IMG/VR virus record: IMGVR_UViG_3300045425_000030
Location: 1-23,604 of that record
DNA length: 23,604 bases
Reading direction: 5' to 3' (one strand)
Source of the DNA: a virus
Position 1 is the stretch's first letter, and every line of letters starts with the position of its first letter. Of this stretch, positions 1 through 23,604 are shown piece after piece. The position numbers were made by a program, and so were the translations under genes. The notes below the pieces were generated by a model that was not told the origin of the DNA, ran no database searches, and saw only the letters and a program-made list of their open reading frames with translations.

Positions 1-1439
1 TTTGTGCATTGATCGTTCAGCTTCATCAGGATGTCGAAAACTTCGTTCAGAAACGGACTGCGACCACCGGCGTTCTTAATCGAAGCGAAGTAGCGATTGA
101 TCTCATCGATCTGGAATAGACTGCTTGGATGCTCATGGATCGCAGTAACGAGAGCTGCGCCCGAAGCGGGATTCTCAGCAGCCAAGTAATCCTGCATCGC
201 CGCCACACTAAATATCTCCCGGCAGCATTTCCTAGACCAATCTTTTCCACTTCCTGATTCGGCCAACCCGATCATGTAGATGTTCGTCCTAAGCCCGCTC
301 TTATTTCGGATCTTGCGACCAGTGATTACGCCGATCATCGCCAACGCATTTGCAAGAGCCAGTTCCGGCCTCGGCCTCGGCGCGGTCGATACTGCGTAAT
401 CGACGAACAACTTAATTATTCCGGACGATTCAAATAGCATTTTTGGCATTGGAAACGGATCGCAATCGACGGTCTTCGGCTTTGGAGTTTCTGCTGTCCA
501 TGCCGCTTTTGGTTCAGCCGGCATGAAATCCGAAAAGTCCTCGACAGCTTTTTGTGCAAAACCCAAATCGAATAATCTAGCCGCCGCCCTCTTGTGATCG
601 CCAGCAAATGCAAGCGACGCAAACGCATGGAAGATATTGATCGAATCGCCGCTTGGAAAATTCGGATCGCTCAACGAGAAGCTAGTAAGTTGGTAATTTC
701 CTTGCTTCGATTTCTTGCCGAGATAACCAGAGCATTGGCTACCTGTCGATTTGTTTGGCCGGTCGAACTCGTAGTATTCGCCAACATTGCGAGTCGCGTA
801 GCCGTTCTTGTGCAGCTCGTTAATCATCGCCAGAAGTCCCAACGGCGATGAATTAAACTCTTGCCCGCTTCGATCGCCAGAGTCGTTAGATACTGCCTTG
901 GCGGTGAATTGCTTATCAGACATTTCAATCAGTCGATCCAATATGATCTTTGGTATCTCAACCAACTCAGCATCTTCGTTTAGCTCATAGATGCCTGGAT
1001 GTGTGTCGTGTGCCGAGTTTGCCGCTACGACTTGCTTCCCCTTCTTCGATAGGAAGTCGATCGCTGGATGCGTTTTCTTTTGAGTCCTTTTCAGCTCAAC
1101 GCCAGGCGGTTTTAGGAAATAGTAATGCCGTCCACCGCTTGGCGTTTGGACAATCGCCTTGCAGCAATCATCGAGAGATAGCCCATTCTCAGCATCGAAC
1201 TTTGCAAGCGACTCTAATCCATTTTCCGCTTCGCTGTGCATGTCAACGTCGATAACCAAATGCACATCATCGAGCGCCCAACCGTACTTGTTGAACTCGT
1301 TCCCTTTGTTTAGCTTCTGCTCAACTTCGTCGTATGGTAGGTTGAGGTCAGGCCAACCTTTGATTGGCGGGAACTTCGAGCCAACTGGTATCTGGTGGAC
1401 TCTAAGCTTATTACGCTTATAGAAGTCGTGGATTTTCAT
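1..1439 (-). CDS. Prim-pol and P-loop (primase-helicase-like) replication protein, C-terminus cut by window edge
   Basis: This gene starts at the ATG at 1439, and 479 codons are visible before it leaves the window without a stop. The N-terminal part looks like a bifunctional primase/polymerase (prim-pol) domain: the acidic DVD motif is at about residues 64-66, SGGRHYYF at 101-108, and the third acidic region AIDFLS at about 126-131, followed by a VVAANSAHDTHPGIY segment typical of the fold. After a linker, a P-loop AESGSGK sits at about 393-399 and a Walker B-like FQIDEI at about 442-447, suggesting a DUF3987- or helicase-like motor. The P-loop is followed by Asp instead of the usual Ser/Thr, which is unusual. 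Known prim-pol/helicase fusions prime and unwind DNA at phage origins. The start overlaps the stop of the upstream gene (ATGA), implying translational coupling. The domain calls are by motif, and the motor subfamily is uncertain. Confidence 0.85.
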   Translation of the reverse strand, partial: MKIHDFYKRNKLRVHQIPVGSKFPPIKGWPDLNLPYDEVEQKLNKGNEFNKYGWALDDVHLVIDVDMHSEAENGLESLAKFDAENGLSLDDCCKAIVQTPSGGRHYYFLKPPGVELKRTQKKTHPAIDFLSKKGKQVVAANSAHDTHPGIYELNEDAELVEIPKIILDRLIEMSDKQFTAKAVSNDSGDRSGQEFNSSPLGLLAMINELHKNGYATRNVGEYYEFDRPNKSTGSQCSGYLGKKSKQGNYQLTSFSLSDPNFPSGDSINIFHAFASLAFAGDHKRAAARLFDLGFAQKAVEDFSDFMPAEPKAAWTAETPKPKTVDCDPFPMPKMLFESSGIIKLFVDYAVSTAPRPRPELALANALAMIGVITGRKIRNKSGLRTNIYMIGLAESGSGKDWSRKCCREIFSVAAMQDYLAAENPASGAALVTAIHEHPSSLFQIDEINRYFASIKNAGGRSPFLNEVFDILMKLNDQCT

Positions 1440-2119
1440 GCCCACGATTCCTTGCGGGTTAAGTTGAAATTGCTAGTCACGCATCTAAGTATCGCTTTGC
1501 TCTTATGGAAATCTTGCCAGTCTTTTTTTAGTTTTGGATCGCTTATATTCCAATTCAATCCATCATCGAATACATCGAATGATTCTTCTTTAAAGAATTC
1601 CTTTTGTATTCTTTGAAACGGCCAAGGATCATTGTGGTCAACATGGCATTCGTTTTTTTTCATCACATCGCCGGTTGCCTCGCAGATCGCATTATCCAAA
1701 AAACAAAAGTAGTTTTCTTTGTACGCAATGACTTGATCTGCAATAGCAATCCTCTTTGCTCTATTAATCCTGTCTGATCGTACCTGCTCTGCTGTTTTTC
1801 CAAATTCACCAAAACCGAAAAGGCATTCAGTCCTATCGACTCGGACCGCATAGAATCCCCAGTGCGGTAATCCAATTTCAGGCGGCACGTAACCAACTTT
1901 AATAGCTGATAGACCTGGGCCTATGATCCAATTCGATCCAACTAATTGAGTTATCATGTCAGCAATAAAAGCAGCATCGTTGCCACTCAATAAAAAAAAC
2001 ATGTCTGGTCTTGGCTCAATGCCTGTAGTAGCTGTTTGTTTTATTTTTCGGCAGTGGTCTTGAACCGATTTAATCGAAGTAAATCCAATTCCGTTTATTA
2101 AGTATTTTGCTGTTTTCAA
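1436..2119 (-). CDS. DCL/DUF3223-like protein with C-terminal HNH-like motif
   Basis: A 227-residue protein. The first 125 residues (INGIGFTS near the start, then WGFYAVRVDRTECLFGF) resemble the DCL/DUF3223 domain found in chloroplast-development and bacterial/phage proteins. The C-terminal part has C146-E-x-T-G, CHVDH at 158-162 and a conserved HK at 205-206, a layout like a degenerate HNH zinc fold. A nuclease role is inference. Translation appears to begin at a TTG (2119-2117) that overlaps the helicase stop as TTGA; a strong GAGGAG Shine-Dalgarno lies 8 nt upstream, which decides the start. By eye the gene is clearly richer in A and T than its neighbours, hinting at separate acquisition. 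It sits between two replication genes, so it could be a replication accessory factor or cargo endonuclease. Confidence 0.75.
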   Translation of the reverse strand: MKTAKYLINGIGFTSIKSVQDHCRKIKQTATTGIEPRPDMFFLLSGNDAAFIADMITQLVGSNWIIGPGLSAIKVGYVPPEIGLPHWGFYAVRVDRTECLFGFGEFGKTAEQVRSDRINRAKRIAIADQVIAYKENYFCFLDNAICEATGDVMKKNECHVDHNDPWPFQRIQKEFFKEESFDVFDDGLNWNISDPKLKKDWQDFHKSKAILRCVTSNFNLTRKESWA

Positions 2120-3786
2120 AATGGCATCTCCTCATCTGCGTAAACATCCTGAACAAACTCAAACTCTTCCGGCATATCAAATAAATCATGCTTGATAATC
2201 CGCCACCAGCGTCCTTCACGCCTAGCTGTGATCGACTTAGTTTTCGCCAACGCTCCTTGGTTCGCTAACTCGACCGCTTCCGCTATCGTACTCGGTGCCT
2301 GAGTCGTTGATCGCTTCGACCACCACTCGATAGCCTTGTTCCGCGCAAAACCAAAACCATGCTCCAAGCAAACCCACTCAGAAATCATTTCAGTATCAAC
2401 CAAATTTCCTTCGTCGTCTTCCACCTGGACCGAGTAATCAACTCGGAACGTCGGCGGCGCATCGGGAGCGTTCTTCTTTTCGTGCAGTGCGTAGCGTTCG
2501 TGAGTCACTTCAAAATGGATTGGAAAGCTAAGTATCGCAGCATCTGCTGGAGTTTCTTCGTGTGATATCTCTGGCTTCGGGAATTCGAATCCGCAAGTGC
2601 AGACCCGCATCGCAGCATGAACTAGCTCTCTGCATCCAGGACATCGTTTTTGCGGAGCCTGTTGCTCGCTGTTCGATTTCGCTCGGACGTTGAAATCGAT
2701 TGCGTCTATCGGCCCGTGCCTCACTACGTTATTGCCGAAATCAAGAATCAGACAATCATCTTTGGACAAATCGGTACGCAGCCCTCGACCGCATATCTGA
2801 GCGAACAGCCCAGGGCTTGCAGTCGCTCGCAAGATTGCAATCAAGTCGATGCACGGCGCATCAAAGCCAGTCGTGAGTACATCGCAGTTCGTCAGCCATC
2901 GCAATTGCCGATTTTTGAATCGGTTCAGCAATGACATCCTTTCCATGGGTGTCGTTTCGCCGACTATATTTCCGCACTCTTCGCCCGTGAGCTTCGATAT
3001 CTCTTGTGCGACGTGCCGACTGTGATCCACGCCAGCACAGAAGATAAGTATGCTATGCCTGCCATAAGATCGATCGACAATCTCTTCGCAGGCCCGCGAT
3101 ATGATATCGTTATCATCGAATAGCCGAACCATTTCATCGGCTTTGAATTCGCCTCCCCTGATCTTCAATTTGCTTGTGTCAGCGTCGCGGATCGATACCG
3201 TCGAAGTAACAGGACAGAGAAAGCCATCGTCGATTAGCGGTCTAATGCCAGCCTCGTAGGTCACCCCTTGAAAAAACGATTCCTTCGAACCGTATAATTT
3301 GCCCGAGTCCGTTCGGTACGGAGTCGCAGTCAGTCCGACTATCTTGAGGTTCGGATTTAATGCACCGAGAGAGTCTAGGAACTGCCGATACATGCCGTCG
3401 CCATCATCAGGTAAGAGATGCACTTCGTCGATTATTACGAGTTGCCTACGGCCCAAGTCCGCAGCCTTCGAGTAAATCGATTGGATACCACCAACGATGA
3501 TATCTTCGTTGATCTGCTTGCGATTAAGGCCAGCCGAGTACAGCCCAACAGGGACGGAACAAAATCGTTTAATCTTGTCGTGATTCTGCTCGATCAATTC
3601 TTTCCTATGTTGCAAAACAACGACTCGACCACCGTATTTTTGAACTGCATCCATAGCCATCGAAGCAATGACCAAGCTCTTGCCAGATCCGGTTGGTAGG
3701 ACGATTAACGGATTGCCACCGCCAGGCGTTTTTAATTGACGCCAGGCGGCAGCTATCGCTTCGTTTTGGTATCCACGCAATTCCAT
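2116..3786 (-). CDS. Superfamily 2 DNA helicase with C-terminal zinc-binding motif
   Basis: A 556-residue protein from the ATG at 3786. Motifs appear in order: RGYQNEA (Q-motif-like, 4-10), PTGSGKS (Walker A, 31-37), DEVH (120-123), GLTATPYRTD (motif III, 151-160), TTGFDAP (307-312 region) and QICGRGLRTD (motif VI, 331-340). These identify an SF2 DEAD/DEAH-type helicase of the UvrB/RecQ-like phage group. After the motor, CPGC...CTC (C383, C386, C397, C399) likely binds zinc. It probably unwinds DNA during phage replication or recombination. The open frame extends upstream to 3906, but that stretch overlaps the SSB-like gene by 115 nt and its residues look non-native. The ATG at 3786 lies 4 nt after the upstream stop and directly precedes the helicase fold, so it is preferred. 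Confidence 0.92.
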   Translation of the reverse strand: MELRGYQNEAIAAAWRQLKTPGGGNPLIVLPTGSGKSLVIASMAMDAVQKYGGRVVVLQHRKELIEQNHDKIKRFCSVPVGLYSAGLNRKQINEDIIVGGIQSIYSKAADLGRRQLVIIDEVHLLPDDGDGMYRQFLDSLGALNPNLKIVGLTATPYRTDSGKLYGSKESFFQGVTYEAGIRPLIDDGFLCPVTSTVSIRDADTSKLKIRGGEFKADEMVRLFDDNDIISRACEEIVDRSYGRHSILIFCAGVDHSRHVAQEISKLTGEECGNIVGETTPMERMSLLNRFKNRQLRWLTNCDVLTTGFDAPCIDLIAILRATASPGLFAQICGRGLRTDLSKDDCLILDFGNNVVRHGPIDAIDFNVRAKSNSEQQAPQKRCPGCRELVHAAMRVCTCGFEFPKPEISHEETPADAAILSFPIHFEVTHERYALHEKKNAPDAPPTFRVDYSVQVEDDEGNLVDTEMISEWVCLEHGFGFARNKAIEWWSKRSTTQAPSTIAEAVELANQGALAKTKSITARREGRWWRIIKHDLFDMPEEFEFVQDVYADEEMPF

Positions 3787-3790
3787 TGCA

Positions 3791-4270
3791 TCAAGCCCAG
3801 GGGTTATCGCCAGCGGCATGCACAATCGGGGACTCCATCGCGGCAGCCGCAGCCGATGGCATTGGTGTAAACTTCGTGACGTTGTTCTGCATCCCGTATT
3901 CGCCATTTTCCTTGACGTTCAGCCGGATCAATAATGGGACTCCATGCAGCTCAGTCGAGTCCTTTGGCGTGCCAACGCCGACGGCCCTGCACAGTTCTGA
4001 CAACTGCCCTTTTGCAATCTTGATCGCCATCTTCTTTTTCTCGTCTGTTTGCGCAAGCCACAGATTGAGATTCGTAAAAATGTGCTGGTTCTGAAATTCA
4101 CCTCGAATGATTTGAAAGTCCATTTTCAAATAGCTTCCGCTATCGTCCTTCGTTTGCTTTTTTTCGGTTGCAACTAGTACCGCTGGATAGTCACCAGCCG
4201 GTAAAGCGTTATTCTCTTTTTGGTTCTCTTTCGCAGTCGAATCGAAACCGTTATCACCAAAACTTGCCAT
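3791..4270 (-). CDS. DUF669-family phage SSB-like protein
   Basis: A 159-residue protein matching the DUF669 family in length and pattern: an N-terminal LPAGDYPAVLVATEKKQTK strand pair, YLKMDFQIIRGEFQNQHIF in the core, and a helix followed by GVPLLIRLNVKENGEYG. The C-terminus ends in DNPWA, similar to the tail that phage and bacterial SSB proteins use to recruit partners. Family members are thought to bind single-stranded DNA and are typically encoded beside a Sak4-type ATPase, as here. A Shine-Dalgarno AAGGTG precedes the ATG at a suitable distance. The helicase gene follows after 4 nt. Single-strand binding is inferred from family and context. Confidence 0.85.
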   Translation of the reverse strand: MASFGDNGFDSTAKENQKENNALPAGDYPAVLVATEKKQTKDDSGSYLKMDFQIIRGEFQNQHIFTNLNLWLAQTDEKKKMAIKIAKGQLSELCRAVGVGTPKDSTELHGVPLLIRLNVKENGEYGMQNNVTKFTPMPSAAAAAMESPIVHAAGDNPWA

Positions 4271-6206: not shown

Positions 6207-6461
6207 TCAATCCTTACTGCACCATTCATCTTCGAAAACGCGATCCCGATCTCGAATCTCACGATACCTTTCGCTGCAAATTTCAAGAACCTCGATAGAC
6301 CAAACTCGAGCATCGAGCCGCCGCTCAGACTTGCCCAGCACGTCCTCTATTGCTCTGCTCGACGTAATCTCTTTCGACGTTTCCAGCGCGATTACATTCG
6401 ATTCAATCAAGCCCGACGGGCTGCACAATCGACGTCGGAAAGTTACTCGGTATCTGCGCAT
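6207..6461 (-). CDS. Small charged protein of unknown function
   Basis: An 84-residue, highly charged protein rich in Arg and Glu, with a basic N-terminus (MRRYRVTFRRR) and a mostly helical-looking C-terminal half. I do not recognise a family. The start overlaps the end of csrA by 19 nt. A GAGGGG Shine-Dalgarno lying within the csrA coding end is 8 nt upstream of the ATG, which supports it as a real, translationally coupled gene. Its position directly after csrA could mean a related regulatory role, but nothing in the sequence shows this. Confidence 0.6.
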   Translation of the reverse strand: MRRYRVTFRRRLCSPSGLIESNVIALETSKEITSSRAIEDVLGKSERRLDARVWSIEVLEICSERYREIRDRDRVFEDEWCSKD

Positions 6462-6634
6462 GAGAGCATCCCCTCAACGTTGATCTGTGCCTGCACTTCG
6501 CCACGATGCACCGTGATGTTTTTGGAGGCATCGATGCCGATCCTGCATTTGTTGCCAGCGATCTCTAAAATTGTGATCGTTATGTTTCCGTCAATAACGA
6601 TCGTTTGAGTTTGTTTGCGACTGAGCACTAGCAT
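6443..6634 (-). CDS. csrA: CsrA-family RNA-binding translational regulator
   Basis: A 63-residue protein with the full CsrA pattern: MLVLSRKQTQTIVIDGNITI at the start, ILEIAGNKCRIGIDA in the middle and ITVHRGEVQ at residues 40-48, containing the Arg of the RNA-binding VHRxEV motif. CsrA dimers bind GGA motifs in mRNA leaders, usually over the Shine-Dalgarno, and repress or stabilise messages. Being inside a phage operon, it probably acts on phage and/or host messages. Its own Shine-Dalgarno (AAAGGAAA) lies between short complementary arms GTTTT and AAAAC, so the GGA could sit in a loop and allow autoregulation. The gene overlaps the upstream 111-residue gene by 44 nt and the downstream one by 19 nt. 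Confidence 0.95.
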   Translation of the reverse strand: MLVLSRKQTQTIVIDGNITITILEIAGNKCRIGIDASKNITVHRGEVQAQINVEGMLSCADTE

Positions 6635-7682: not shown

Positions 7683-8246
7683 TTATTCTTCCGATGTCAA
7701 TTTATTTTCCGGCCAAATCGGCTTGCCGAGCTTTGCGTTGACCGCATTATGCAGGTCGATAGCCCATCGCGCAAAGTCGTCGTACCGAGGCGGAGAATGC
7801 ACGAGGTATTCTGCGAGCCACTTCCGACACCCGCAACTCGCTTGCGGCACTCGCACGAGCCAGCGCGCAAACCACTCCGGCGTCGCGTCTTGTTTTTCAT
7901 GCAGCTCGGACCACAGGCCATGATACAGAGCAAGAGTCGGATCGAGGTACTTAGGATGCGCAGGCCTCGAACGTGTGTACTCGCTCGATACCGGCCCTAC
8001 GTTGCCTTTTTCGATTGCGTTTTGATTTGGGCAAACGACTCGCTTCAGCAAGCCGATAAGATACTTTTTGTCTGCTGGTCTCGGATGTGGAATGACGTGC
8101 AACGCCAGCGATGCTGTCACGCTATTGATGCGTGTAGACTCGGCTAGGCATACATTGCAAGCACCGTCTGTTGTGCTTGCTGTGGCACCCGCCATCTCCG
8201 ATGCTTGCAGGCAGGTTGTGCCCTGACGGTACTCGCAGATTATCAC
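7683..8246 (-). CDS. Cysteine-containing protein resembling the ERV/ALR thiol-oxidase fold
   Basis: A 187-residue protein if it starts at the GTG at 8246, which overlaps the upstream stop as GTGA; an ATG at 8195 is the alternative. The N-terminal part carries ICEYRQGTTC and CNVC, possibly a metal site. The last 80 residues match the order of ERV/ALR sulfhydryl oxidase landmarks: a W-x-x-LH helix (LWSELHEKQ), a cysteine pair before a helix (CGCRKW), a PP turn, then W-x-x-x-LHNAVNAKLGKP near the end. In true ERV/ALR enzymes the pair is CxxC and the HN-x-VN helix binds FAD; here it is CGC, so the catalytic chemistry may be altered or lost. The assignment is by pattern only. It follows structural genes, including a cysteine-rich one. 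Confidence 0.6.
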   Translation of the reverse strand: MIICEYRQGTTCLQASEMAGATASTTDGACNVCLAESTRINSVTASLALHVIPHPRPADKKYLIGLLKRVVCPNQNAIEKGNVGPVSSEYTRSRPAHPKYLDPTLALYHGLWSELHEKQDATPEWFARWLVRVPQASCGCRKWLAEYLVHSPPRYDDFARWAIDLHNAVNAKLGKPIWPENKLTSEE

Positions 8247-8674
8247 GACAGGGTAAACACGCCCGACGCATGAGCTGCGACGGTCAGGGTGTTTCCAGAA
8301 GTGGCTGTAACATCGGCAGGCGTGGAATCTAAAAGGCAGTAGCAAAGCACGTTCCCACCCACCTCATAGATAACTGCGTGCCGTGCAACGATCGATCCAC
8401 CGCTAGCTGTCCAAACTGGATCGGTTTGGATGTCTACTGTAACCGTCGTTGTACCTCCAAGCGTCAATACAATTGATATACCACCATCCGTATAACCGTT
8501 TGCATTTGCATGTTCGCTTGTATCTAGTCCAGCCCATGTTGTCGTCCCAGAGCCAGGCTGTGTTCCTGTCGATAAATGTAACGCCATCTTCCACGTATCC
8601 GAATTGATGTCAAACGTGCCATCGAGTAGCTTCGTTCTGCCTTCATTCGTAAATGTCCATGCTCCAGCAGCCAT
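8243..8674 (-). CDS. Phage structural protein (beta-rich, tail/fibre-associated)
   Basis: A 143-residue protein beginning MAAGAWTFTNEGRTKLLDG and containing DTWKMALHLSTGTQ, SEHANANGYTDGG, VTVDIQTDPVWTASGG and ARHAVIYEVGG. This pattern is common in phage and prophage genomes as a small putative virion protein near tail genes, often of unknown role. It is beta-rich, with no signal peptide or membrane segment. A good Shine-Dalgarno (AAAGGGAAA) precedes the ATG. It lies between the large repeat-containing tail protein and the ERV/ALR-like protein. It may form part of the tail tip or fibres. Confidence 0.75.
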   Translation of the reverse strand: MAAGAWTFTNEGRTKLLDGTFDINSDTWKMALHLSTGTQPGSGTTTWAGLDTSEHANANGYTDGGISIVLTLGGTTTVTVDIQTDPVWTASGGSIVARHAVIYEVGGNVLCYCLLDSTPADVTATSGNTLTVAAHASGVFTLS

Positions 8675-8695: not shown

Positions 8696-11212
8696 TTATT
8701 CAGAAGTAACAGTTGGTTCAAAAGTCGTCAAAAACAACGATCGTCTAATTGGTATTGGTGTGTCCACCGGAACCGTACCGCAGTCGCCAGAAACTAGCGT
8801 TTGGGTATCGTAAGTACCTGCCATCGTCGGCGGGTCGTTGCAGATGCAGTCATCGTAAAGCGCATCGGCACAATTGAAAGTTTCCTCAATCCATTCCCAT
8901 GATGCTTCGATCCAAATCCATGTGCACGGATCGGATGGACATGATACTGTGCCCGTAACCGTCGGTGCAAACGTCGTTATCACTAAATCAATTGTAGTTG
9001 GTGTCTCAACAACTGGTGTCAGTATTGTGCTGATAAACGTGCTTAGCGTTAGCGACTCTGTATCCGGTACTACGAGAATTGGAACATAAATCGTTGGCTC
9101 GAATGTTGCAAGCGTCAGCGTAGCGGTTGTTGGCGTCTCAACTACCGGTGCCGCTATCGTTGGCTCGAATGTTGCAACCGTCAGCGTAGCCGTGGTCGGT
9201 GTCTCAACTACCGGTGTTGCTATCGTTGACTCGAACGTCGCCAGCGTCAGTGCAGCCGTGGTCGGTGTAGCTAGTATTGGCGATCCAGCAGACGGGGCAA
9301 ACGTCGTCAGCGTCAGCGATGCAGTCGTCGGCGTCTCAACTACCGGTGCCATGATCGTTGGCTCGAACGTTGCCAGCGTGAGTGCAGCCGTCGTCGGTGT
9401 CGCTAGTATTGGAGATCCAGCGGTCGGTGCAAACGTCGCCAGCGTCAGCGATGCAGTTGTCGGCGTCGATAGTACAGCAGATCCAGCAGAAGGAGCGAAC
9501 CTTGAAATGGTTAGCGTAGCCGTCGTCGGCGTTGCTAGTATTGGTGTCACGATCGTTGGTGCAAACGTCGCAAGCGTCAGCGTAGCAGTTGTTGGCGTTA
9601 GCGTGCTTGGTGCCGCGATCGTTGGCACCAATGTTGCCAGCGTCAGCGTAGCATTGCTTGGCGTAAAACCTCCAGGCAAATTGGCTGAAGGTGCAAAGGT
9701 AGTGAGCGTCAGCGATGCAGTCGCAGGTGTAATCGTCGTCGGTGTTGAAACTGTCGGTGCAAAAAAAGATAGCGTTAGCTCTGCTGGTATCACCGATCCA
9801 GGCGGAGTCACAGTTATCGTCCAGCCCGAAAATGTCTGACATACCTCGACTTCGTTGTAGCCACTGCATGTCACCGTGCGAGACTCTGCAATTATGCGAT
9901 AATGCAATTCGTAATTTATCGGATCGCTAGTCACGACTCCAACGACTAAATCTGGATTGCTATTGCCGACTTGATCGGCTGGCGTTGGGCATTCGTCACA
10001 TGCGTAGGTTGGAAAGCAATCGAGATAGTCAGCAGTTGCTTTTGGTACCATGTAGTCGCAGTAACCAATAATTCCACCGTAGCCTACATGTGCTGTCGTC
10101 CAACTTGCCCACTCGTCGAGAGTCTCGCAATAGTCGTCAGGGTTATTTGGGCTTGCAAATGCGTTGCAGCACATTGTCATGTTTTGCGGAACAGAAATAT
10201 AAACGAATCCGTCTGGGTAACAATTTGTATTTGGGAAGCCCCAAAAATAATACTTATTCGTGCCGCAAATGTTTGTGAAACCAGCCTCAGACTCGGCAGT
10301 AACTATAGTTGCATCGCAAAAATACTGAGTAGGTTCTGCGTCTCCTGTCGGACCGCTTGACCAGCATTGCAAATTTTCGTCGCAAATTATGCACTCGTTG
10401 AAAACGCAACCAGCATTTGGAATATCGCCATTGGCAAACGTGTAGTTGGTGGCAACAGATGGCAGGGAGGTTAATACTTTCTCTCGGCAAACATGCGATG
10501 CTATGTCGTCATATGAGACAATGTCCGCAGGGTCATAATTGTACAAGTCAAAAGTAGGCGATCCAACGACGGAGTTAGCGGGAACCTCCCAGCAATCAAT
10601 ATCGGTAACGCCCTCGTCAGCAGCATAGGTCGTAGATAGCTCGTTGTAATTTCCGTAAAGATAACGTCCAGAATAATTGATTGTTGATCTAATGATATAT
10701 TTAGTAACCGCAGCCGCTGGAGCACAGACATAATCCTCAACCTTCAAAATCACTACGCTAATCGTGTCTGCTCGTAACTCAACAAAGAATCGTTGTCCTC
10801 CTCTCGACCTCACTGTTTTGGTCAACGTTGCAATTGATACTGGCGTAGCAGGGCAGCAGTCGTAAGTTGGTTGTGTTCCCTCTGGCAAATGATTTGGCTT
10901 TGGTGACGAACCAATTGTTGCCGCTTCACCCTCACCATTCTCGCTCCAAAATGATTGCGTGACCGAACCGCAGGTAAACGGGTAGTGGTACGTTTCTGTC
11001 TCGCAAATTTCGGTCTTGTCGTAGGTCATCACGTCGCCACCGTCAAGCACGGTAAAACCTTGCGGTGTGTCGTACTCAAAAACGATCATCGCACAGCATT
11101 GAGAAATCTTAACCCAGTCGTACAGAACCGACATATTGGCAATCGTTATCGTTGGCAGGTCCGCAATGAGCAGCTCGCACGTTCCGCAACAGCAGTTGCC
11201 AATTCCACCCAT
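8696..11212 (-). CDS. Large cysteine-rich, repeat-containing tail or fibre protein
   Basis: An 838-residue protein. The start is the ATG at 11212, overlapping the upstream stop as TGATG; a TTG at 11218 also keeps the frame open. The front half begins GGIGNCCCGTC and carries many Cys residues (CCPATP, CCNAF, CDECP, ICDENLQC), suggesting disulfides or metal clusters. From roughly residue 465 to 750, about thirteen 22-residue units of the form LTLATFxPTxxxPxxxTPTTAT follow; each looks like a beta strand pair joined by a Pro/Thr linker. Such repeats occur in phage tail fibres and surface proteins. The C-terminal part has a further Trp/Cys region (WIWIEASWEWIEE) and ends with one more LTTFEPTV strand. 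Its position after the tape-measure block fits a tail-tip or adhesion role, which is inferred. Confidence 0.75.
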   Translation of the reverse strand: MGGIGNCCCGTCELLIADLPTITIANMSVLYDWVKISQCCAMIVFEYDTPQGFTVLDGGDVMTYDKTEICETETYHYPFTCGSVTQSFWSENGEGEAATIGSSPKPNHLPEGTQPTYDCCPATPVSIATLTKTVRSRGGQRFFVELRADTISVVILKVEDYVCAPAAAVTKYIIRSTINYSGRYLYGNYNELSTTYAADEGVTDIDCWEVPANSVVGSPTFDLYNYDPADIVSYDDIASHVCREKVLTSLPSVATNYTFANGDIPNAGCVFNECIICDENLQCWSSGPTGDAEPTQYFCDATIVTAESEAGFTNICGTNKYYFWGFPNTNCYPDGFVYISVPQNMTMCCNAFASPNNPDDYCETLDEWASWTTAHVGYGGIIGYCDYMVPKATADYLDCFPTYACDECPTPADQVGNSNPDLVVGVVTSDPINYELHYRIIAESRTVTCSGYNEVEVCQTFSGWTITVTPPGSVIPAELTLSFFAPTVSTPTTITPATASLTLTTFAPSANLPGGFTPSNATLTLATLVPTIAAPSTLTPTTATLTLATFAPTIVTPILATPTTATLTISRFAPSAGSAVLSTPTTASLTLATFAPTAGSPILATPTTAALTLATFEPTIMAPVVETPTTASLTLTTFAPSAGSPILATPTTAALTLATFESTIATPVVETPTTATLTVATFEPTIAAPVVETPTTATLTLATFEPTIYVPILVVPDTESLTLSTFISTILTPVVETPTTIDLVITTFAPTVTGTVSCPSDPCTWIWIEASWEWIEETFNCADALYDDCICNDPPTMAGTYDTQTLVSGDCGTVPVDTPIPIRRSLFLTTFEPTVTSE
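8957..9815 (-). repeat. Tandem 66-bp coding repeat array (about 13 units)
   Basis: The DNA encoding the 22-residue units of the large tail protein forms a degenerate tandem array with a 66-bp period. Blocks such as GTCGGCGT, GCAAACGTCG and CAGCGTCAGCG recur along it. Units in the middle (for example those ending ETPTTA) are closer to each other than to the outer units, consistent with recent duplication or exchange within the array. Copy number is likely to vary between relatives. Confidence 0.85.
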
Positions 11213-11880
11213 CAGCAAATCTCCGAAGCAAACCAGCGTCCGTAAGAAGACAACATTAAAATCCTAGTGTCAGCAGGTATCGAAGCTCCAAGTGTTTCGG
11301 CCAAATATTCTTTTGCTGTGATCGTGTCCGTCGCATCGTAAGCCAGCACGTTTGCCGGAGCACCAGCAACTAACGCCGCCCCTTGCGTCTTGCCGTACAT
11401 GCACGAGGTATCGAACATGACTCGCACAATATCGGTTGCAATGTCATCCTCTCCCAGCACTGCGTACAAACTGCCATAGGTTGCCGTGAAAGTTGCGGTA
11501 AGCGAGCCGAGTCTGTCGCCTGCGACGTATGCCGTTCCGTTATGCAGGAGTCGATACACTGGCCCGATCTGTGCAGAGCCGTATTCGTTTGTCAGCACCT
11601 CACGAGGCCCGTTTATTAGCAGCGGGCATCGCATCAATGTTGCGTCAATCGGTCGCTTAATCGTCACGTAGTTAAACGAGCCAGTGACCTCGACTGTACC
11701 GCTAATCTGCATCAGCCCATACGGTGGTACTGTCTGAGCTGAGTCGTTCCGAAAGTAGATAGCGTTGGGAACGGCATTGATGGAATCGGTAGCAATGTCG
11801 CTTGGTAGCAATTCCACCTTGCGCGTAGCTGCCCAGACTCGTTTTTTTTGATCGCTTGAGAATTCTGTCCGCCTAGGCAT
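11212..11880 (-). CDS. Putative phage structural protein
   Basis: A 222-residue protein from the ATG at 11880 (MPRRTEFSSDQKKRVW), which overlaps the end of the upstream gene by 8 nt; a second in-frame start lies 7 codons upstream. The sequence is beta-rich, with YFRNDSAQTVPPYGLMQISG and alternating strands, and no cysteine-rich or membrane segment stands out. No family is recognised with confidence. It resembles accessory virion proteins (decoration or tail-tip) placed among late genes. It is coupled to the next gene by TGATG. Confidence 0.65.
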   Translation of the reverse strand: MPRRTEFSSDQKKRVWAATRKVELLPSDIATDSINAVPNAIYFRNDSAQTVPPYGLMQISGTVEVTGSFNYVTIKRPIDATLMRCPLLINGPREVLTNEYGSAQIGPVYRLLHNGTAYVAGDRLGSLTATFTATYGSLYAVLGEDDIATDIVRVMFDTSCMYGKTQGAALVAGAPANVLAYDATDTITAKEYLAETLGASIPADTRILMLSSYGRWFASEIC

Positions 11881-17823: not shown

Positions 17824-18801
17824 TTAAGCAATCTTTAGCAGGTGACCAGCTTGAGCATACAAAACGATCTCGTCCACATCGTGACGCACTCGAACGATGT
17901 TGGCTCGAACTGTTTCGTCACGGTAGCTTTCGACCGCTCCGTCGATATTGCTGCCATCAGCCCCCCAATGGAACGATCGACCGATGCAAGGCTCGCGGAA
18001 ATCGTTGCCGACTGCCACCTTGCAAACCATTGCGTATGTACTCGACCATAGCTGAGCTGGCGTTGCCGTCTGCCCTTCCGCTGCCGAGTTGTAAGAACCA
18101 CCGGCAACGATGATGTAGTCGAGGTCGAACGCCTGAGCGAGCATGTCGATTGTGACATCGCTTACAAGGTTGCGATTACCGGCACCGCTTGACGCAATCC
18201 GATCAATCACTTGTGCAGTGTTACGCAAGTTGCGAAACACCTTGCGATTAATAACCAACGCGTTCGGCCACAAGCCCGAACCGTCATAGACCTTTTGCAC
18301 CGCTGACTCAACATTGGTCAACGGAACAGCAGACGCGATAGTTGCCCAAGGCGTACCGGATACGTCAGTCGTTAGACTAGCTCCTGTCCATGTAGTGGTG
18401 TTGAAAATTGCGTCAGCGACTCGCTTTTCGGCGTTTCGCAAAACAGCGTTGTATGCCCGACGAGTCGAGATAACTTCTGCGTCGAAATACTCCGCGTACA
18501 TCTTCGCTTCGCGATCGTCGATCGGCTCTTCCGCACCATGCTCTTCGCAAGCATAGGTAGACGTGTCGAACGTGAAATTTCCGCGTGCATAACCGCTGCC
18601 GGGAGCACGTTTCGTATCTCGTTGCTGGAGCAACTGAGCTAGCGGGATCTTACCGAATGTTCCCGCTTGGCTTGCAACGTCGACCGTTGGCATAACCTTA
18701 CGAGCGATGTAACCGGCTTTCTCTGCTTCCAGGTCGAACGCTTCAAAGCTTTCGGCTAGGTCTGGTCGAAGAGTGCTTAAACTCGAACTTGGACTTGGCA
18801 T
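17824..18801 (-). CDS. Major capsid protein (lambda gpE/HK97-fold family)
   Basis: A 325-residue protein starting MPSPSSSLSTLRPDLAESFE. It contains ARKVMPTVDVASQAGTFGKI, the YACEEHGAEEPIDDREAKMY segment (about residues 82-102), and ALVINRKVFRNLRNTAQVID, then ends VRVRHDVDEIVLYAQAGHL. These are the usual landmarks of the phage major capsid protein E-like family: an N-arm, an acidic mid-region and a C-terminal strand rich in basic and acidic residues. Order also fits: decoration protein upstream, neck protein downstream. A Shine-Dalgarno-like GGGGAAAAGAG precedes the ATG. A Rho-independent terminator lies just upstream, so part of its expression may start or be processed between 18802 and 18845. 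Confidence 0.88.
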   Translation of the reverse strand: MPSPSSSLSTLRPDLAESFEAFDLEAEKAGYIARKVMPTVDVASQAGTFGKIPLAQLLQQRDTKRAPGSGYARGNFTFDTSTYACEEHGAEEPIDDREAKMYAEYFDAEVISTRRAYNAVLRNAEKRVADAIFNTTTWTGASLTTDVSGTPWATIASAVPLTNVESAVQKVYDGSGLWPNALVINRKVFRNLRNTAQVIDRIASSGAGNRNLVSDVTIDMLAQAFDLDYIIVAGGSYNSAAEGQTATPAQLWSSTYAMVCKVAVGNDFREPCIGRSFHWGADGSNIDGAVESYRDETVRANIVRVRHDVDEIVLYAQAGHLLKIA

Positions 18802-19330: not shown

Positions 19331-19801
19331 CTAGCCGTTTACTTCTGCCAGCATTTGCTCACGCAATCCTGGATTTTCTTTGTTGACAAGCTGAGTTGCC
19401 TTTGCCCTTGGCATGCCAGTACTTACCTTGGCTTGAATCAAAGTCGACCAGCTTTGCTTTGCTGACTTACTAGGTTGCGATTTCGCTTGCGCAAGCGGAG
19501 CGACTCCCGACTTAGCTTTGGCAATCGGAGGCGAGACAGCGACAGGCTGAATCGGTTCCTCTGCCACTGGAGGTTCCATTGCGTCTGGCATCGCCATCGA
19601 AGCAAGTTGTGCTTCGAGTGCCGTAATTCGATCAGCAAGACTTTGATTGTCGATCATTACTTCGGCATAGGCTGCCTCTGCAACTTTCGGCATTGGCATT
19701 TCTTGCTCCATGCACTTAACGATGAACTCGGCTTTCGCCTTTGGATAAGCCGCTTTGATTTCTTTAATCGTTGCAGCGACTGTTGCTTGAGATTCTGACA
19801 T
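19331..19801 (-). CDS. Nested scaffold protein (lambda Nu3-like) from internal start
   Basis: The ATG at 19801 is in frame within the protease gene (its residue 204) and would give a 156-residue product beginning MSESQATVAATIKEIKAAYP. It has a strong Shine-Dalgarno, AAAGGA, 6-7 nt upstream, much better than expected inside a coding region. In lambda the scaffold Nu3 is made from exactly such an in-frame internal start in gene C. The product contains only the helical, Ala/Pro/Lys-rich scaffold part. Confidence 0.7.
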   Translation of the reverse strand: MSESQATVAATIKEIKAAYPKAKAEFIVKCMEQEMPMPKVAEAAYAEVMIDNQSLADRITALEAQLASMAMPDAMEPPVAEEPIQPVAVSPPIAKAKSGVAPLAQAKSQPSKSAKQSWSTLIQAKVSTGMPRAKATQLVNKENPGLREQMLAEVNG

Positions 19802-20410
19802 TGGATTTCCTTTTGTCGGTTCTCGGTTATCGCCACTAAGAACGGCACCAAACAGTGCCTGTACAATCCCATGCGGCATCGTCTTAACTTTTGCAAACAC
19901 CCGGCCCATTACGGGAGTCGGCGTTATTCGATTTACGAAACCATTTGCTAGTGCACTGGTCGCGTCCATAAATGTTTCTGTAGCCAGAATGCCTCGGATC
20001 TCGTCCGCACTCTTACCAGTTTTCGCTGAGTAAGCATTGACCATGTTGGTCGTCATGTCGCTTAGCAATAGCGAACGCTTAGCAAAATCAACATCGTCAC
20101 CCTCAAAACCCATGTAGGGTTTGTGAAGCATTAAATAGCCGTTGGGCGTAATCTCGACGTCATCAAATGCCATTGGAATGAATGACGAAATCGAGAACGC
20201 CGACGATGCAATCACGCATCGCTTAGGACCGGCATAAGCTTTGAGTGCGTCGTAGATTGCAAAGCCTTCGATAACAGAACCGCCCTCGCTGTGGATGCAG
20301 ACCTCGATTGGATCGAGTCCGTTTGGTGGCAGTTGCGATTTAACCCAGGACGAAGAAACTTGACCGTCTTCGCGTCCAACTTCGCCGTCAATTGTGATTC
20401 GTTTAAGCAT
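19331..20410 (-). CDS. ClpP-type head maturation protease with C-terminal scaffold (lambda gpC-like)
   Basis: A 359-residue protein. The N-terminal 190 residues form a ClpP/S49-like protease: VCIHSEGGSV at 37-46, the nucleophile region SAFSISSFIPMA with the likely catalytic Ser at 73, the NGYLMLHKP strand with likely catalytic His96, and TGKSADEIRG...ETFMDA, where an Asp would complete the site. The C-terminal part is helical and Ala/Lys/Gln-rich (KEIKAAYPKAKAEFIVK; LADRITALEAQLAS), like a scaffold. It digests scaffold and trims head proteins during assembly. The ATG overlaps the portal stop region by 8 nt and has a GGAGGT Shine-Dalgarno. An internal start at 19801 probably makes the scaffold alone. 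Confidence 0.88.
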   Translation of the reverse strand: MLKRITIDGEVGREDGQVSSSWVKSQLPPNGLDPIEVCIHSEGGSVIEGFAIYDALKAYAGPKRCVIASSAFSISSFIPMAFDDVEITPNGYLMLHKPYMGFEGDDVDFAKRSLLLSDMTTNMVNAYSAKTGKSADEIRGILATETFMDATSALANGFVNRITPTPVMGRVFAKVKTMPHGIVQALFGAVLSGDNREPTKGNPMSESQATVAATIKEIKAAYPKAKAEFIVKCMEQEMPMPKVAEAAYAEVMIDNQSLADRITALEAQLASMAMPDAMEPPVAEEPIQPVAVSPPIAKAKSGVAPLAQAKSQPSKSAKQSWSTLIQAKVSTGMPRAKATQLVNKENPGLREQMLAEVNG

Positions 20411-22460
20411 CGATTGGCACCTCCGCTAATGGCTCTTCAATCGGTTCATCGACTTGACCGTCGAGAGCGTCTTTGATGTATGCATCAATCTTTTGCGGCG
20501 GGACGTTTAGAGAGTCAAGTTCTAATCGTGCTCTTGTTTCGCTGATCGTTCCAGCAATCATCTCGGCAAGGATGTCATTGATTGCCTTGCGCGCGTTCTT
20601 AAAGTCGGATCGCTTAACGCCGAGCATTTCCGCATTAGCTTCCGTTGCCTGCTCCGGTATCGGATTGCCAGCCGCATCAACTGGCAATGCAGCCGTTGGA
20701 GCAGGCACGCCGTCCGCTGTGATTGTGCCTGGTTGGATCGGATCAATAATCGACGCAATTTGTTCTGGTGTCATCGTCGGGAACGCTGCGTTGATAACCG
20801 CAATGGCTGTTTCTTTAGGCATCGCACCAGTGCCGACTTGCGTTACCACGTCCATCAAGCTTGTCACTTGAGCACCATTTAGCGCCGTTGCCGCTACGTT
20901 GATCTGTGACGTTGGATCTGTACCGTCGCCAGCTGCCTGACCTTCCATCATCGCCGGATCCTGCAAGGCCAACGTCTGCCCCGCTGGCATCACCAACGGA
21001 ATCAAATCTCGCCAGGTTAGCGGAGGACTCAATGGGTTGGCCGCATTAAACTCGGCAGCCGTCTTAGCTGCGTTGTTGATCGCGTAAATGTTGTCGTCGA
21101 TGATTTCCTCGCTGACCTCTTCCCAATCGCTACCACGTGCACTGTGCAGCCGTCGCGGGCTTGTCAGTGCGTTGCGTAGCTGAGTCGCATCGCCTTCCGC
21201 ATCGGCAACCGGCTCGATATAGGACCACGTGGGAAGGTTCCAGTTGTGCGAGTAGACTTTAATCTTTGGCTTGTCATTCCAATTGCGCAAATCAAAATCC
21301 TCTGCGATCTCACGGGACAACCACCATTCGTAGGCTGGCTTGTGGAGTCTTCGAACTAAGTTGAGTTGATCGGCAACGAAACCCTTGCGAGCTTCGTCTA
21401 CCGCGCCACGCCAGCCAGAGAAATTTGTTTCGCTGCCGTCCATTAAAACTAGGCAAAGAGGCAAACCGAAGTTGACTCCAAGCACTTGCAGAATCAATTT
21501 GACTTGCTGAAAGTATTCGCTGTTCGGCACGTTGGGCGAAAAGCCTTGCAACTCTTCGCCAGGTTGACCCACAATCTCCATGCCAGGACTAACGCCCTCC
21601 AGTTGCCGAACGCCCGCCGCTGTCGTCTCTGTTGACGACTGACCGTATCCGCCAGTAGACGGCAGGTTAGGAGCAAGACCCATCTTGCGAAAAATCGCAA
21701 AGCACGACACAACTTGCTGCTGGACTAGCTTCGCAAAGTTGATGTCCTCGAGCATGCCAGCGTAAGAAAACACCGGAGCGATTTGAGAAACGCCGCGAGT
21801 CTGCAAAACTCGCTTTGGATTGTAGACGTGGAACACTTGCCGCCGGTTGTCGCTGTCGCGCACGTCAATTGGCGTCGAGTCGCCTTTGGTCGCGAACTTG
21901 TTCAATTCCTCTTGGACATGATATTGTAATCGCTTGCCGTACCTGTCCGTTGTGACGCCAAGAAACGTATCCGGTACGCTGCCTTTAGTTTGGATTGAAT
22001 GCGATTCGATAACTTGCAACGGTCCATCCTGCGTGCCTGCAATCACAATGTCGCCATCAATCGATTCGGCCCGAGCTGCGTAGCGTTCCATCTCGGCCCA
22101 TGTCGATTCGCCCGCAATGTCGCATAGATCGGGGTCGGTGGAATAGGCCATCCAACGATCCCAAAGCTCTGTATCTAGTCCCTTGTCGCCAGTCTTCGGA
22201 TCGAGCTTGAATCCGCTCTGCACGATGTTATCGACTCGACGATCGGCAAGGATACCAATTACCGCATCGTTGCGGTCCATGTCGCGGGCCTGCTCAACGT
22301 CTCGGTAGTATTGCGACTCTAGCCGATAGTGGTAGTCGGCACCTGAACCCTGCGGTGCGACGCCTTTTCGCTTGCGAACGAAGCGGCTCTCCCGACTCAT
22401 TTCATAGTCTGCTCGAATACCGTCGAACGTACTTTGAAGCGTTTTCTTTTTTGCAGCCAT
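20403..22460 (-). CDS. Portal protein (lambda gpB family)
   Basis: A 685-residue protein of the lambda-type phage portal family. The N-terminal region has YRDVEQARDMDRNDAVIGI and RVDNIVQSGFKLDPKTG, the classic segment in which a portal crown residue pattern is followed by GDIVIAGTQDG and QVIESHSIQ. Further on are RQVFHVYNPKRVLQTRGVSQ, PVFSYAGMLEDINFAKLVQQ and NFSGWRGAVDEARKGF, all usual landmarks. The C-terminal 120 residues are Pro/Ala/Glu-rich and variable. It forms the dodecameric DNA-entry ring. The start overlaps the upstream stop (TGATG) and sits in a hairpin that displays GGA over the Shine-Dalgarno, suggesting regulation by the phage CsrA. Confidence 0.92.
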   Translation of the reverse strand: MAAKKKTLQSTFDGIRADYEMSRESRFVRKRKGVAPQGSGADYHYRLESQYYRDVEQARDMDRNDAVIGILADRRVDNIVQSGFKLDPKTGDKGLDTELWDRWMAYSTDPDLCDIAGESTWAEMERYAARAESIDGDIVIAGTQDGPLQVIESHSIQTKGSVPDTFLGVTTDRYGKRLQYHVQEELNKFATKGDSTPIDVRDSDNRRQVFHVYNPKRVLQTRGVSQIAPVFSYAGMLEDINFAKLVQQQVVSCFAIFRKMGLAPNLPSTGGYGQSSTETTAAGVRQLEGVSPGMEIVGQPGEELQGFSPNVPNSEYFQQVKLILQVLGVNFGLPLCLVLMDGSETNFSGWRGAVDEARKGFVADQLNLVRRLHKPAYEWWLSREIAEDFDLRNWNDKPKIKVYSHNWNLPTWSYIEPVADAEGDATQLRNALTSPRRLHSARGSDWEEVSEEIIDDNIYAINNAAKTAAEFNAANPLSPPLTWRDLIPLVMPAGQTLALQDPAMMEGQAAGDGTDPTSQINVAATALNGAQVTSLMDVVTQVGTGAMPKETAIAVINAAFPTMTPEQIASIIDPIQPGTITADGVPAPTAALPVDAAGNPIPEQATEANAEMLGVKRSDFKNARKAINDILAEMIAGTISETRARLELDSLNVPPQKIDAYIKDALDGQVDEPIEEPLAEVPIDA

Positions 22461-22479
22461 CAGCGAAATCCTTCGCTGA
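22460..22479 (-). promoter_or_regulatory. Hairpin over the portal ribosome-binding site, candidate CsrA target
   Basis: A perfect 8-bp stem (TCAGCGAA with TTCGCTGA) closes a GGAT loop; the last paired base is the A of the portal ATG. The AAGGAU across stem and loop matches the ARGGAU core recognised by CsrA and is also the portal Shine-Dalgarno. A csrA gene is encoded further along the same phage. Binding is inferred. Confidence 0.65.
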
Positions 22480-22732
22480 CAGACAAGAACTTGACGTTGC
22501 TCGATACAGTCTGATTGAGTGCAACGAAGTTGCGAGCACGGTTGAGAAGGTTCTCAATTTGCGTCGTGCTGATTGCCATCGACGAGCCTTGGTCGGATTG
22601 GCTCTGTGGCGTCAAAATAAAATAGCGGACCGCAGCAGTAATAAACGCCTGAGCTTTTGAAACCGATGTCGATTGTTCAAAGTCGGCGTTGTCGAGGAGC
22701 GTATCGATGACCTCGTCAATGGTTGCTGGCAT
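22460..22732 (-). CDS. Small protein in the gpW position, upstream of portal
   Basis: A 90-residue protein with two helical stretches (TIDEVIDTLLDNADFEQSTS; TQIENLLNRARNFVALNQTV) and a middle AQAFITAAVRYFI segment. It lies directly before the portal gene, where lambda encodes gpW, a small head-completion protein. Sequence similarity to gpW is not evident, so that role is only positional. No good Shine-Dalgarno precedes the ATG. Its last codons form the hairpin that controls the portal start. The CRISPR array begins 96 bp upstream. Confidence 0.65.
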   Translation of the reverse strand: MPATIDEVIDTLLDNADFEQSTSVSKAQAFITAAVRYFILTPQSQSDQGSSMAISTTQIENLLNRARNFVALNQTVSSNVKFLSVSEGFR

Positions 22733-22827
22733 GCACCAAAGATAAAGTGCAGCCGCTCAGAATGTCAGTTGTTTTAAGCCTGTTCGTATAATCGGTTTTT
22801 CCGAATCGTCATGCTGATGGAAAGGCA

Positions 22828-23604
22828 ATTGCATCGTCATTTGGTTTGTTCGGTCACTGTTACTCCAGTGCGGGCGGAAGCGATCCACCTACCCAATTTC
22901 TTGCATCGTCATTTGGTTTGTTCGGTTACTGTTACAAGCCGGACGAAAAGAAACCCGAAAACAACAACACCTTGCATCGTCATTTGGTTTGTTCGGTTAC
23001 TGTTACCAGACATGATCGGCATGATTGCATTGCGGCGTCTGCTCCTTGCATCGTCATTTGGTTTGTTCGGTTACTGTTACTTGGCTATCCTGGAATCATG
23101 CCCTGACCAAGAATGGCCTTGCATCGTCATTTGGTTTGTTCGGTTACTGTTACGTTGGCATCGCTGGAACCGCTTTTGGATCACTACTTGCTTGCATCGT
23201 CATTTGGTTTGTTCGGTTACTGTTACCAAGTCAGTCGCATGGGATCCGTCCAAAGGTACAATCCTTGCATCGTCATTTGGTTTGTTCGGTTACTGTTACA
23301 CCGTTGTTCGCAATGCGGACTCGGTTCCATGAAAACCTTGCATCGTCATTTGGTTTGTTCGGTTACTGTTACCCCCGCAGAAACCATCAAGGGAAATCCA
23401 GAAACAACACTTGCATCGTCATTTGGTTTGTTCGGTTACTGTTACACCTGCAAGCCGAAGAACGACGCACAGGGACGCAGGCGCTTGCATCGTCATTTGG
23501 TTTGTTCGGTTACTGTTACCAAGTCAGTCGCATGGGATCCGTCCAAAGGTACAAAGCTTGCATCGTCATTTGGTTTGTTCGGTTACTGTTACATTCAGCA
23601 AGCA
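22828..23604 (-). CRISPR. CRISPR array, 11 repeats visible, running off the right edge; no cas genes in window
   Basis: Eleven copies of a 36-bp repeat start at 22828, 22900, 22971, 23045, 23118, 23191, 23264, 23337, 23410, 23484 and 23557. On the plus strand each begins CTTGCATCGTCATTTGG and ends GGTTACTGTTAC. The ten complete spacers are 36, 35, 38, 37, 37, 37, 37, 37, 38 and 37 bp, and an eleventh is cut by the edge. Only the leftmost repeat deviates (its first base, and T to C near its end), which normally marks the leader-distal end. Transcription from a leader beyond the right edge, towards the portal operon, is therefore inferred. The repeat shows no strong internal hairpin. Repeat and spacer lengths are compatible with several types, including type III and some type V, so the type is left open. 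Confidence 0.93.

What the first reader, a model, noticed from the sequence alone, without database searches (positions are those of the whole stretch)
22828..23604. CRISPR array adjacent to the late operon of a lambda-like phage, without cas genes in view
Eleven nearly identical 36-bp repeats with unrelated spacers lie 96 bp upstream of the gpW-position/portal gene, roughly where a terminase would be expected. Only replication, small early and structural phage genes are visible over the rest of the window. Phage-carried arrays are known (large phages, mini-arrays), but one sitting in front of a morphogenesis operon is unusual. Transcription inferred from the degenerate leftmost repeat would run into the portal operon. 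The array may use host Cas proteins against competing phages, or an effector may lie just beyond the right edge.
Basis: partly seen in the sequence, partly recalled or inferred. Interest (0 to 1): 0.85.

Follow-up and report, generated by a model that had tools for sequence, protein, structure and literature searches.

The report
CRISPR array in phage weapon slot
A bacterial virus carries a CRISPR array (a list of target sequences) beside its shell-building genes, at the very spot where sister viruses carry a different RNA-guided weapon called VIPR, so this spot may be a bay for weapons used against rival viruses.

Summary
The array is real: 11 copies of a 36-nt repeat with ten 35-38-nt spacers; the record ends inside it. 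The window is a whole 23.6-kb IMG/VR record without recognisable cas genes. In relatives the order is terminase, small gene, 90-aa gene, portal. The gap before the 90-aa gene is at most 120 bp in 60 of 76 distinct relatives and 274-1859 bp in 12. The array starts 15 bp from a phage-conserved block in this gap, so a phage-borne array is much likelier than a random chimera, but one metagenomic contig cannot prove it. Three relatives (L012, L037, L065; L012 with an 80% identical portal) carry a Vipr gene plus GGYNN guide repeats in the same gap. VIPR is a recently described RNA-guided inter-phage system (PMC13142463). Best reading: cargo aimed at competing mobile elements, using host Cas proteins or an effector beyond the right edge; effector, targets and host are unknown. 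Phage arrays near terminase or in morphogenesis modules are already known (CL131, C. difficile prophages), so the array is a new member of a known kind. The shared CRISPR/VIPR slot looks new.

The parts
22828..23604 (-). CRISPR array: 11 repeats of 36 nt, 10 complete spacers of 35-38 nt, cut off by the contig end; minus strand is the inferred sense strand (repeat GTAACAGTAACCGAACAAACCAAATGACGATGCAAG)
   Evidence: strand inferred from the degenerate leftmost repeat
22828..22863 (-). degenerate terminal repeat (2 changes), taken as the end far from the leader
23227..23263 (-). spacer 6, 35 of 37 bases identical to spacer 10
23520..23556 (-). spacer 10, near-duplicate of spacer 6, differing in the two leader-side bases
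22813..22827 (.). 15-nt stretch between the phage-conserved block and the array, within which the junction lies
22783..22812 (-). phage-conserved block just before the 90-aa gene; about 25 of 30 bases identical in L003 and L007; in them it encodes the end of the small gene (..MTVRKNG*)
   Evidence: base count by eye on the alignment
22460..22732 (-). 90-aa gene directly before the portal, conserved in relatives
   Evidence: no Pfam or PHROG match
20403..22460 (-). portal protein (Phage_portal_2, lambda family)
19331..20410 (-). head maturation protease
17824..18801 (-). major head protein

Best explanation
A tailed phage of an unidentified host carries a CRISPR array as accessory cargo in the gap between the small gene that follows terL and the 90-aa gene before the portal. 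The array points the same way as the late operon. It would be transcribed from a leader to the right, or by read-through of late transcription, and give crRNAs against competing phages or other mobile elements. These would be loaded into host Cas proteins or into an effector encoded just beyond the right edge. Shown: the array, its phage context, the junction at a recurrent cargo gap, and VIPR systems in the same gap of sister phages. Inferred: orientation, transcription, effector, targets and benefit.
For: Eleven-copy array far beyond chance. The junction lies 15 bp from a block that relatives keep at the same place before the 90-aa gene. The gap is a cargo site: at most 120 bp in 60 of 76 distinct relatives, 274-1859 bp in 12. 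Only 2.6% of the phage part is intergenic, so a random join would seldom fall here and at the array's terminal repeat together. Three sister phages carry the inter-phage weapon VIPR in this gap (PMC13142463). Precedents: N-1, a cas-less array transcribed in infection (PMC4916379); CL131, terL then array then TnpB-like effector; archaeal virus mini-arrays in inter-viral conflict (PMC6858448).
Against: A single contig that ends inside the array; no relative has an array; no contig with the same repeat; no cas gene in view; no spacer target found; no leader, promoter or host identified.
Confidence: 0.7

Rival explanations
1. Chimeric contig: a host chromosomal CRISPR array wrongly joined to a phage fragment during library amplification or assembly.
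For: The record ends in the array; no relative or other contig confirms the join. Repeat and phage block share the 8-mer ATGACGAT near the junction, which could favour an amplification chimera. Spacers 6 and 10 share about 70 bp together with the adjoining repeat, so the order of spacers in the assembly is not certain.
Against: The junction lies at a gap used for cargo by relatives, next to a conserved phage block and at the terminal repeat of the array, in a genome with only 2.6% intergenic DNA. Eight shared bases are too few for a graph-assembly join at usual k-mer sizes (general knowledge).
Confidence: 0.17
2. The phage carries a complete compact CRISPR system, with a type V (Cas12f or V-U like) effector and perhaps a tracrRNA just beyond the right edge, so it does not depend on host Cas proteins.
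For: CL131 has this layout: terL, 36-nt repeat array, TnpB-like effector. The repeat has no stable hairpin. In the inferred sense orientation it aligns with a Cas12f1 repeat recalled from memory better than 5000 shuffles.
Against: The recalled repeat could not be confirmed from data; a type I-D repeat also scored p = 0.001 in the same test, so the test is not specific. No TnpB/Cas12f-like domain in 40 related records. Nothing beyond 23604 can be seen.
Confidence: 0.25
3. The array no longer guides interference; its transcripts act as repeat decoys that titrate host Cas proteins (RNA anti-CRISPR).
For: Phage-encoded solitary repeat units inhibit host CRISPR (PMC10651486 abstract).
Against: Racrs are solitary repeats; ten complete spacers of regular length and near-identical repeats look like a maintained guide array.
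Confidence: 0.05
4. A prophage integrated beside an ordinary host CRISPR array.
For: No read or extension data exclude host DNA to the right of 23604.
Against: The junction lies inside the late gene block between terL-side genes and the portal, not at an attachment site; no integrase was recognised in the scanned genes. No prophage of this family was found in 84,980 genomes.
Confidence: 0.04

Closest known systems
CRISPR locus of cyanophage vB_AphaS-CL131, putative type V-U2 (MG209611; PMC6293099)
   Same: Full-size array of 36-nt repeats with 10 spacers in a tailed phage, directly downstream of terL; both repeats read CTTGC...AC on the + strand.
   Different: CL131 has a TnpB-like effector beside the array and a 113-kb genome; ours shows no effector, and the gap and flanking genes are not homologous as far as tested.
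Cyanophage N-1 CRISPR array (PMC4916379)
   Same: Array without cas genes in a phage genome; [quoted passage not shown]
   Different: 5 repeats of 37 bp of the I-D type, flanked by exonuclease and hypothetical genes; ours has 11 repeats of unknown type before the portal.
Prophage-carried CRISPR arrays of Clostridioides difficile (as described in PMC4916379)
   Different: Repeats match the host's arrays there; here the host and its repeats are unknown.
Virus-borne mini-CRISPR arrays of Sulfolobales viruses (PMC6858448)
   Same: Viral arrays without cas genes that target related viruses and use host Cas.
   Different: 1-2 spacers; ours has at least 10 and no target found.
VIPR systems (PMC13142463)
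   Same: RNA-guided inter-phage system; occupies the same gap in the sister phages L012, L037 and L065.
   Different: VIPR uses GGY/NN repeats and a single RAMP protein; the window has a conventional repeat-spacer array and no Vipr.

Membership tests
CRISPR array | near-identical direct repeats of 20-50 nt at regular spacing | tested here: met
   11 copies of 36 nt at 71-74-nt spacing
CRISPR array | unique spacers of similar length | tested here: met
   10 spacers of 35-38 nt; one near-duplicate pair
CRISPR array | AT-rich leader at one end | not testable with these tools
   the presumed leader end lies beyond the contig edge
CRISPR array | spacers match mobile elements | tested here: inconclusive
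   no match in held loci, phages, plasmids or two IMG/VR scans
Phage-borne array | array lies within a phage genome, phage genes on both sides | tested here: inconclusive
   phage genes on the left only; the contig ends in the array
Virus-borne mini-CRISPR array | 1-2 spacers | tested here: not met
   at least 10 spacers
Virus-borne mini-CRISPR array | repeat identical to the host's repeat | tested here: inconclusive
   host unknown; no exact repeat in genome contigs
Type V-F / V-U CRISPR system | Cas12f or TnpB-like effector at the locus | not testable with these tools
   beyond the edge; none in the window genes scanned and none in 40 related records
Type V-F / V-U CRISPR system | repeat of the V-F kind | tested here: inconclusive
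   similar to a recalled Cas12f1 repeat, unspecific test, comparator not confirmed
VIPR (sister phages L012, L037, L065, not the window) | Vipr RAMP protein | tested here: met
   profile A5, built on L037, L012 and homologs, hits the SUSP1 Vipr chain at 2.8e-49; model pLDDT 91 matches Csm3 folds; L065 is 81% identical to L037
VIPR (sister phages L012, L037, L065, not the window) | vrRNAs of 9-16 GGY/NN units | tested here: met
   runs of 8-13 GG-NN units beside the gene

The most novel reading that the evidence does not exclude
The gap between terL and the portal in this phage family is a standing bay for RNA-guided weapons against other phages, in which CRISPR arrays and the proposed older VIPR system replace each other between close relatives.
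Probability: 0.35. Interest if true: 0.75.

Novelty: new member of a known kind. Interest (0 to 1): 0.52.

Why it matters
Phages with ordinary-size genomes rarely carry full-length CRISPR arrays. This one sits where sister phages carry VIPR, a system proposed to be older than CRISPR. If confirmed, one gene slot would hold two different RNA-guided systems for the same presumed job, giving a natural place to look for more such systems and to study how phages exchange them.

Tried and rejected
Exact repeat in IMG/VR and GTDB genomes: none. Relaxed repeat pattern and a Cas12f-repeat pattern in IMG/VR: none, so the Cas12f1 repeat recalled from memory could not be confirmed. Host search by the portal in genomes: one distant Clostridia hit, host not identified. 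Spacers against the window, related loci (DNA and peptide level), phage and plasmid records and two codon-degenerate IMG/VR scans: nothing above chance. Cas12f homologs in phage and plasmid records are mostly annotated as TnpB or transposases and gave no V-F repeat set. A two-copy repeat in L037 was first taken for a mini-array; it is GGCNN repeats. Sister-phage VIPR guides decoded with the 1-nt skip rule against 1.6 Mb of held DNA gave no target better than shuffles. Rfam: nothing in the window. Promoter and terminator scans: no more than chance. PADLOC hits of the helicase (2116-3906) to Cas3, PbeA and restriction-enzyme models are read as shared helicase domains, not as Cas.

Full report
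What is there. The right end of the window holds eleven copies of a 36-nt repeat with ten complete spacers of 35-38 nt. Ten copies are identical. The leftmost differs at two positions, which marks it as the end far from the leader and puts the sense strand of the array on the minus strand, the direction of the phage late genes; this is an inference from a general rule. A 35-mer occurs ten times, while shuffles never gave more than four copies of even a 12-mer. Spacers 6 and 10 share 35 of 37 bases and differ only in the two bases at the presumed leader side. The window is the complete IMG/VR record of 23,604 bp and stops 12 nt into the eleventh spacer.

The phage. The rest is a compact, leftward gene string: portal (PF05136), head maturation protease, cement-like and major head proteins, neck protein and tail-region genes, then a CsrA-like regulator, a PolB-type exonuclease, a Sak4-like annealing protein, SSB, helicase and prim-pol primase. 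No Cas1 was found in the record, and of 25 of the 29 listed genes scanned against PADLOC none is a credible cas gene; the other four include CsrA, the head protease and the major head protein. Relatives with 62-82% identical portals are common in IMG/VR, whereas isolated phages share only about 22-27% over part of the protein. A search of GTDB genomes found no prophage of this family, so the host is unknown.

The site. In relatives the order is terL (GpA nuclease domain), a small gene of about 90 aa, the 90-aa gene, portal. Among 76 distinct relatives the gap between the small gene and the 90-aa gene is 120 bp or less in 60, 187-238 bp in 4 and 274-1859 bp in 12; the long ones hold extra genes or repeats. 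In the window a 30-nt block (22783-22812) that relatives have at the same place before the 90-aa gene is still present, about 25 of 30 bases identical to L003 and L007, and the array begins 15 bp beyond it. In L003 and L007 this block encodes the last codons of the small gene (MTVRKNG); the window still reads MTIRKN in that frame, so the array sits at the very end of where the small gene would be. Whether the small gene and terL follow to the right cannot be seen. Only 2.6% of the phage part is intergenic, so a random chimera would rarely join here and at the array's terminal repeat at the same time. This favours a genuine phage-borne array without proving it.

An unexpected parallel. Three relatives with long gaps (L012, L037, L065) carry a protein of PHROG 4652, listed as unknown, beside pentanucleotide GGCNN-type repeats. 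A fourth, L026, shows such repeats just before its 90-aa gene, but its contig begins there. A 13-sequence profile of the protein hits the solved SUSP1 Vipr protein at E = 2.8e-49, and a confident model (pLDDT 91) matches Csm3-type RAMP proteins at E down to 1.3e-5. This is the VIPR system, an RNA-guided inter-phage system reported in a 2026 preprint (PMC13142463). In L012, whose portal is about 80% identical to the window's, it lies between the small gene and the 90-aa gene. Vipr also lies between terL and portal in phages with only about 23% portal identity (L162, L163, L164, L169). The array in the window thus occupies the position of another RNA-guided system in sister phages. Vipr and GGYNN arrays are absent from the window.

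How it would work. The most likely use is against competing phages or satellites, by crRNAs made during infection and loaded into host Cas proteins or into an effector encoded beyond the contig edge. Support is by analogy: the cas-less array of cyanophage N-1 is transcribed during infection (PMC4916379); mini-arrays of archaeal viruses are implicated in inter-viral conflict (PMC6858448); cyanophage CL131 has terL, then an array of 36-nt repeats, then a TnpB-like effector; VIPR in the same slot acts between phages according to its discoverers. The repeat has no stable hairpin. In the inferred sense orientation it resembles a Cas12f1 repeat that I recalled from memory and could not confirm from data. 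A type I-D repeat also scored well in the same test, so type V is only a lead. No spacer target was found.

Novelty. Phage-borne arrays are known, including arrays in the morphogenesis modules of C. difficile prophages and next to terL in CL131, so the array is a new member of a known kind. I found no description of a slot shared by CRISPR and VIPR in the few papers I read, but I made no systematic literature search for it. It rests on one CRISPR-bearing contig and three or four VIPR-bearing ones, and the gap also holds unrelated cargo in other relatives, so it is a hypothesis worth testing.

Noticed in passing
L037:4556-6181, L065:4210-5126, L012:1144-1884, L026:136-267: VIPR systems (Vipr/PHROG 4652 gene plus GGYNN guide repeats) in the gap between the small gene and the 90-aa gene of relatives; L026 shows only the repeats at its contig start. 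PHROG 4652, listed as unknown function, can be read as Vipr.
   Followed up: yes
L162, L163, L164, L169: Vipr genes between terL and portal also in phages with only about 23% portal identity, so this position recurs beyond the family.
   Followed up: partly
L168, L170-L178, L181: Further phage contigs with PHROG 4652 genes followed by GGYNN runs; types and targets not studied.
   Followed up: no
L012:1926-2402: A 158-aa gene between the Vipr gene and the 90-aa gene, possible vipr-accessory (vap) gene; no Pfam match.
   Followed up: no
L025:515-1054: Cargo gene in the same gap with a weak, below-cut-off match to a PD-(D/E)XK endonuclease (PF11645).
   Followed up: no
window 6443-6634: Phage-encoded CsrA-like regulator (PF02599, E 6.8e-21).
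   Followed up: no
window 1436-2119: Weak match to HamC2/DUF3223 of the Hachiman-type defence models in PADLOC (E 2.2e-10), in a replication gene block.
   Followed up: no
window 7683-8345: Weak, below-cut-off match to the Erv1/Alr sulfhydryl oxidase family, unusual for a phage if real.
   Followed up: no
window 8696-11218: 840-aa protein with a repetitive TPTTATLTLATFAPT-type region and a cysteine-rich first half, no family match; possibly a tail or fibre protein.
   Followed up: no
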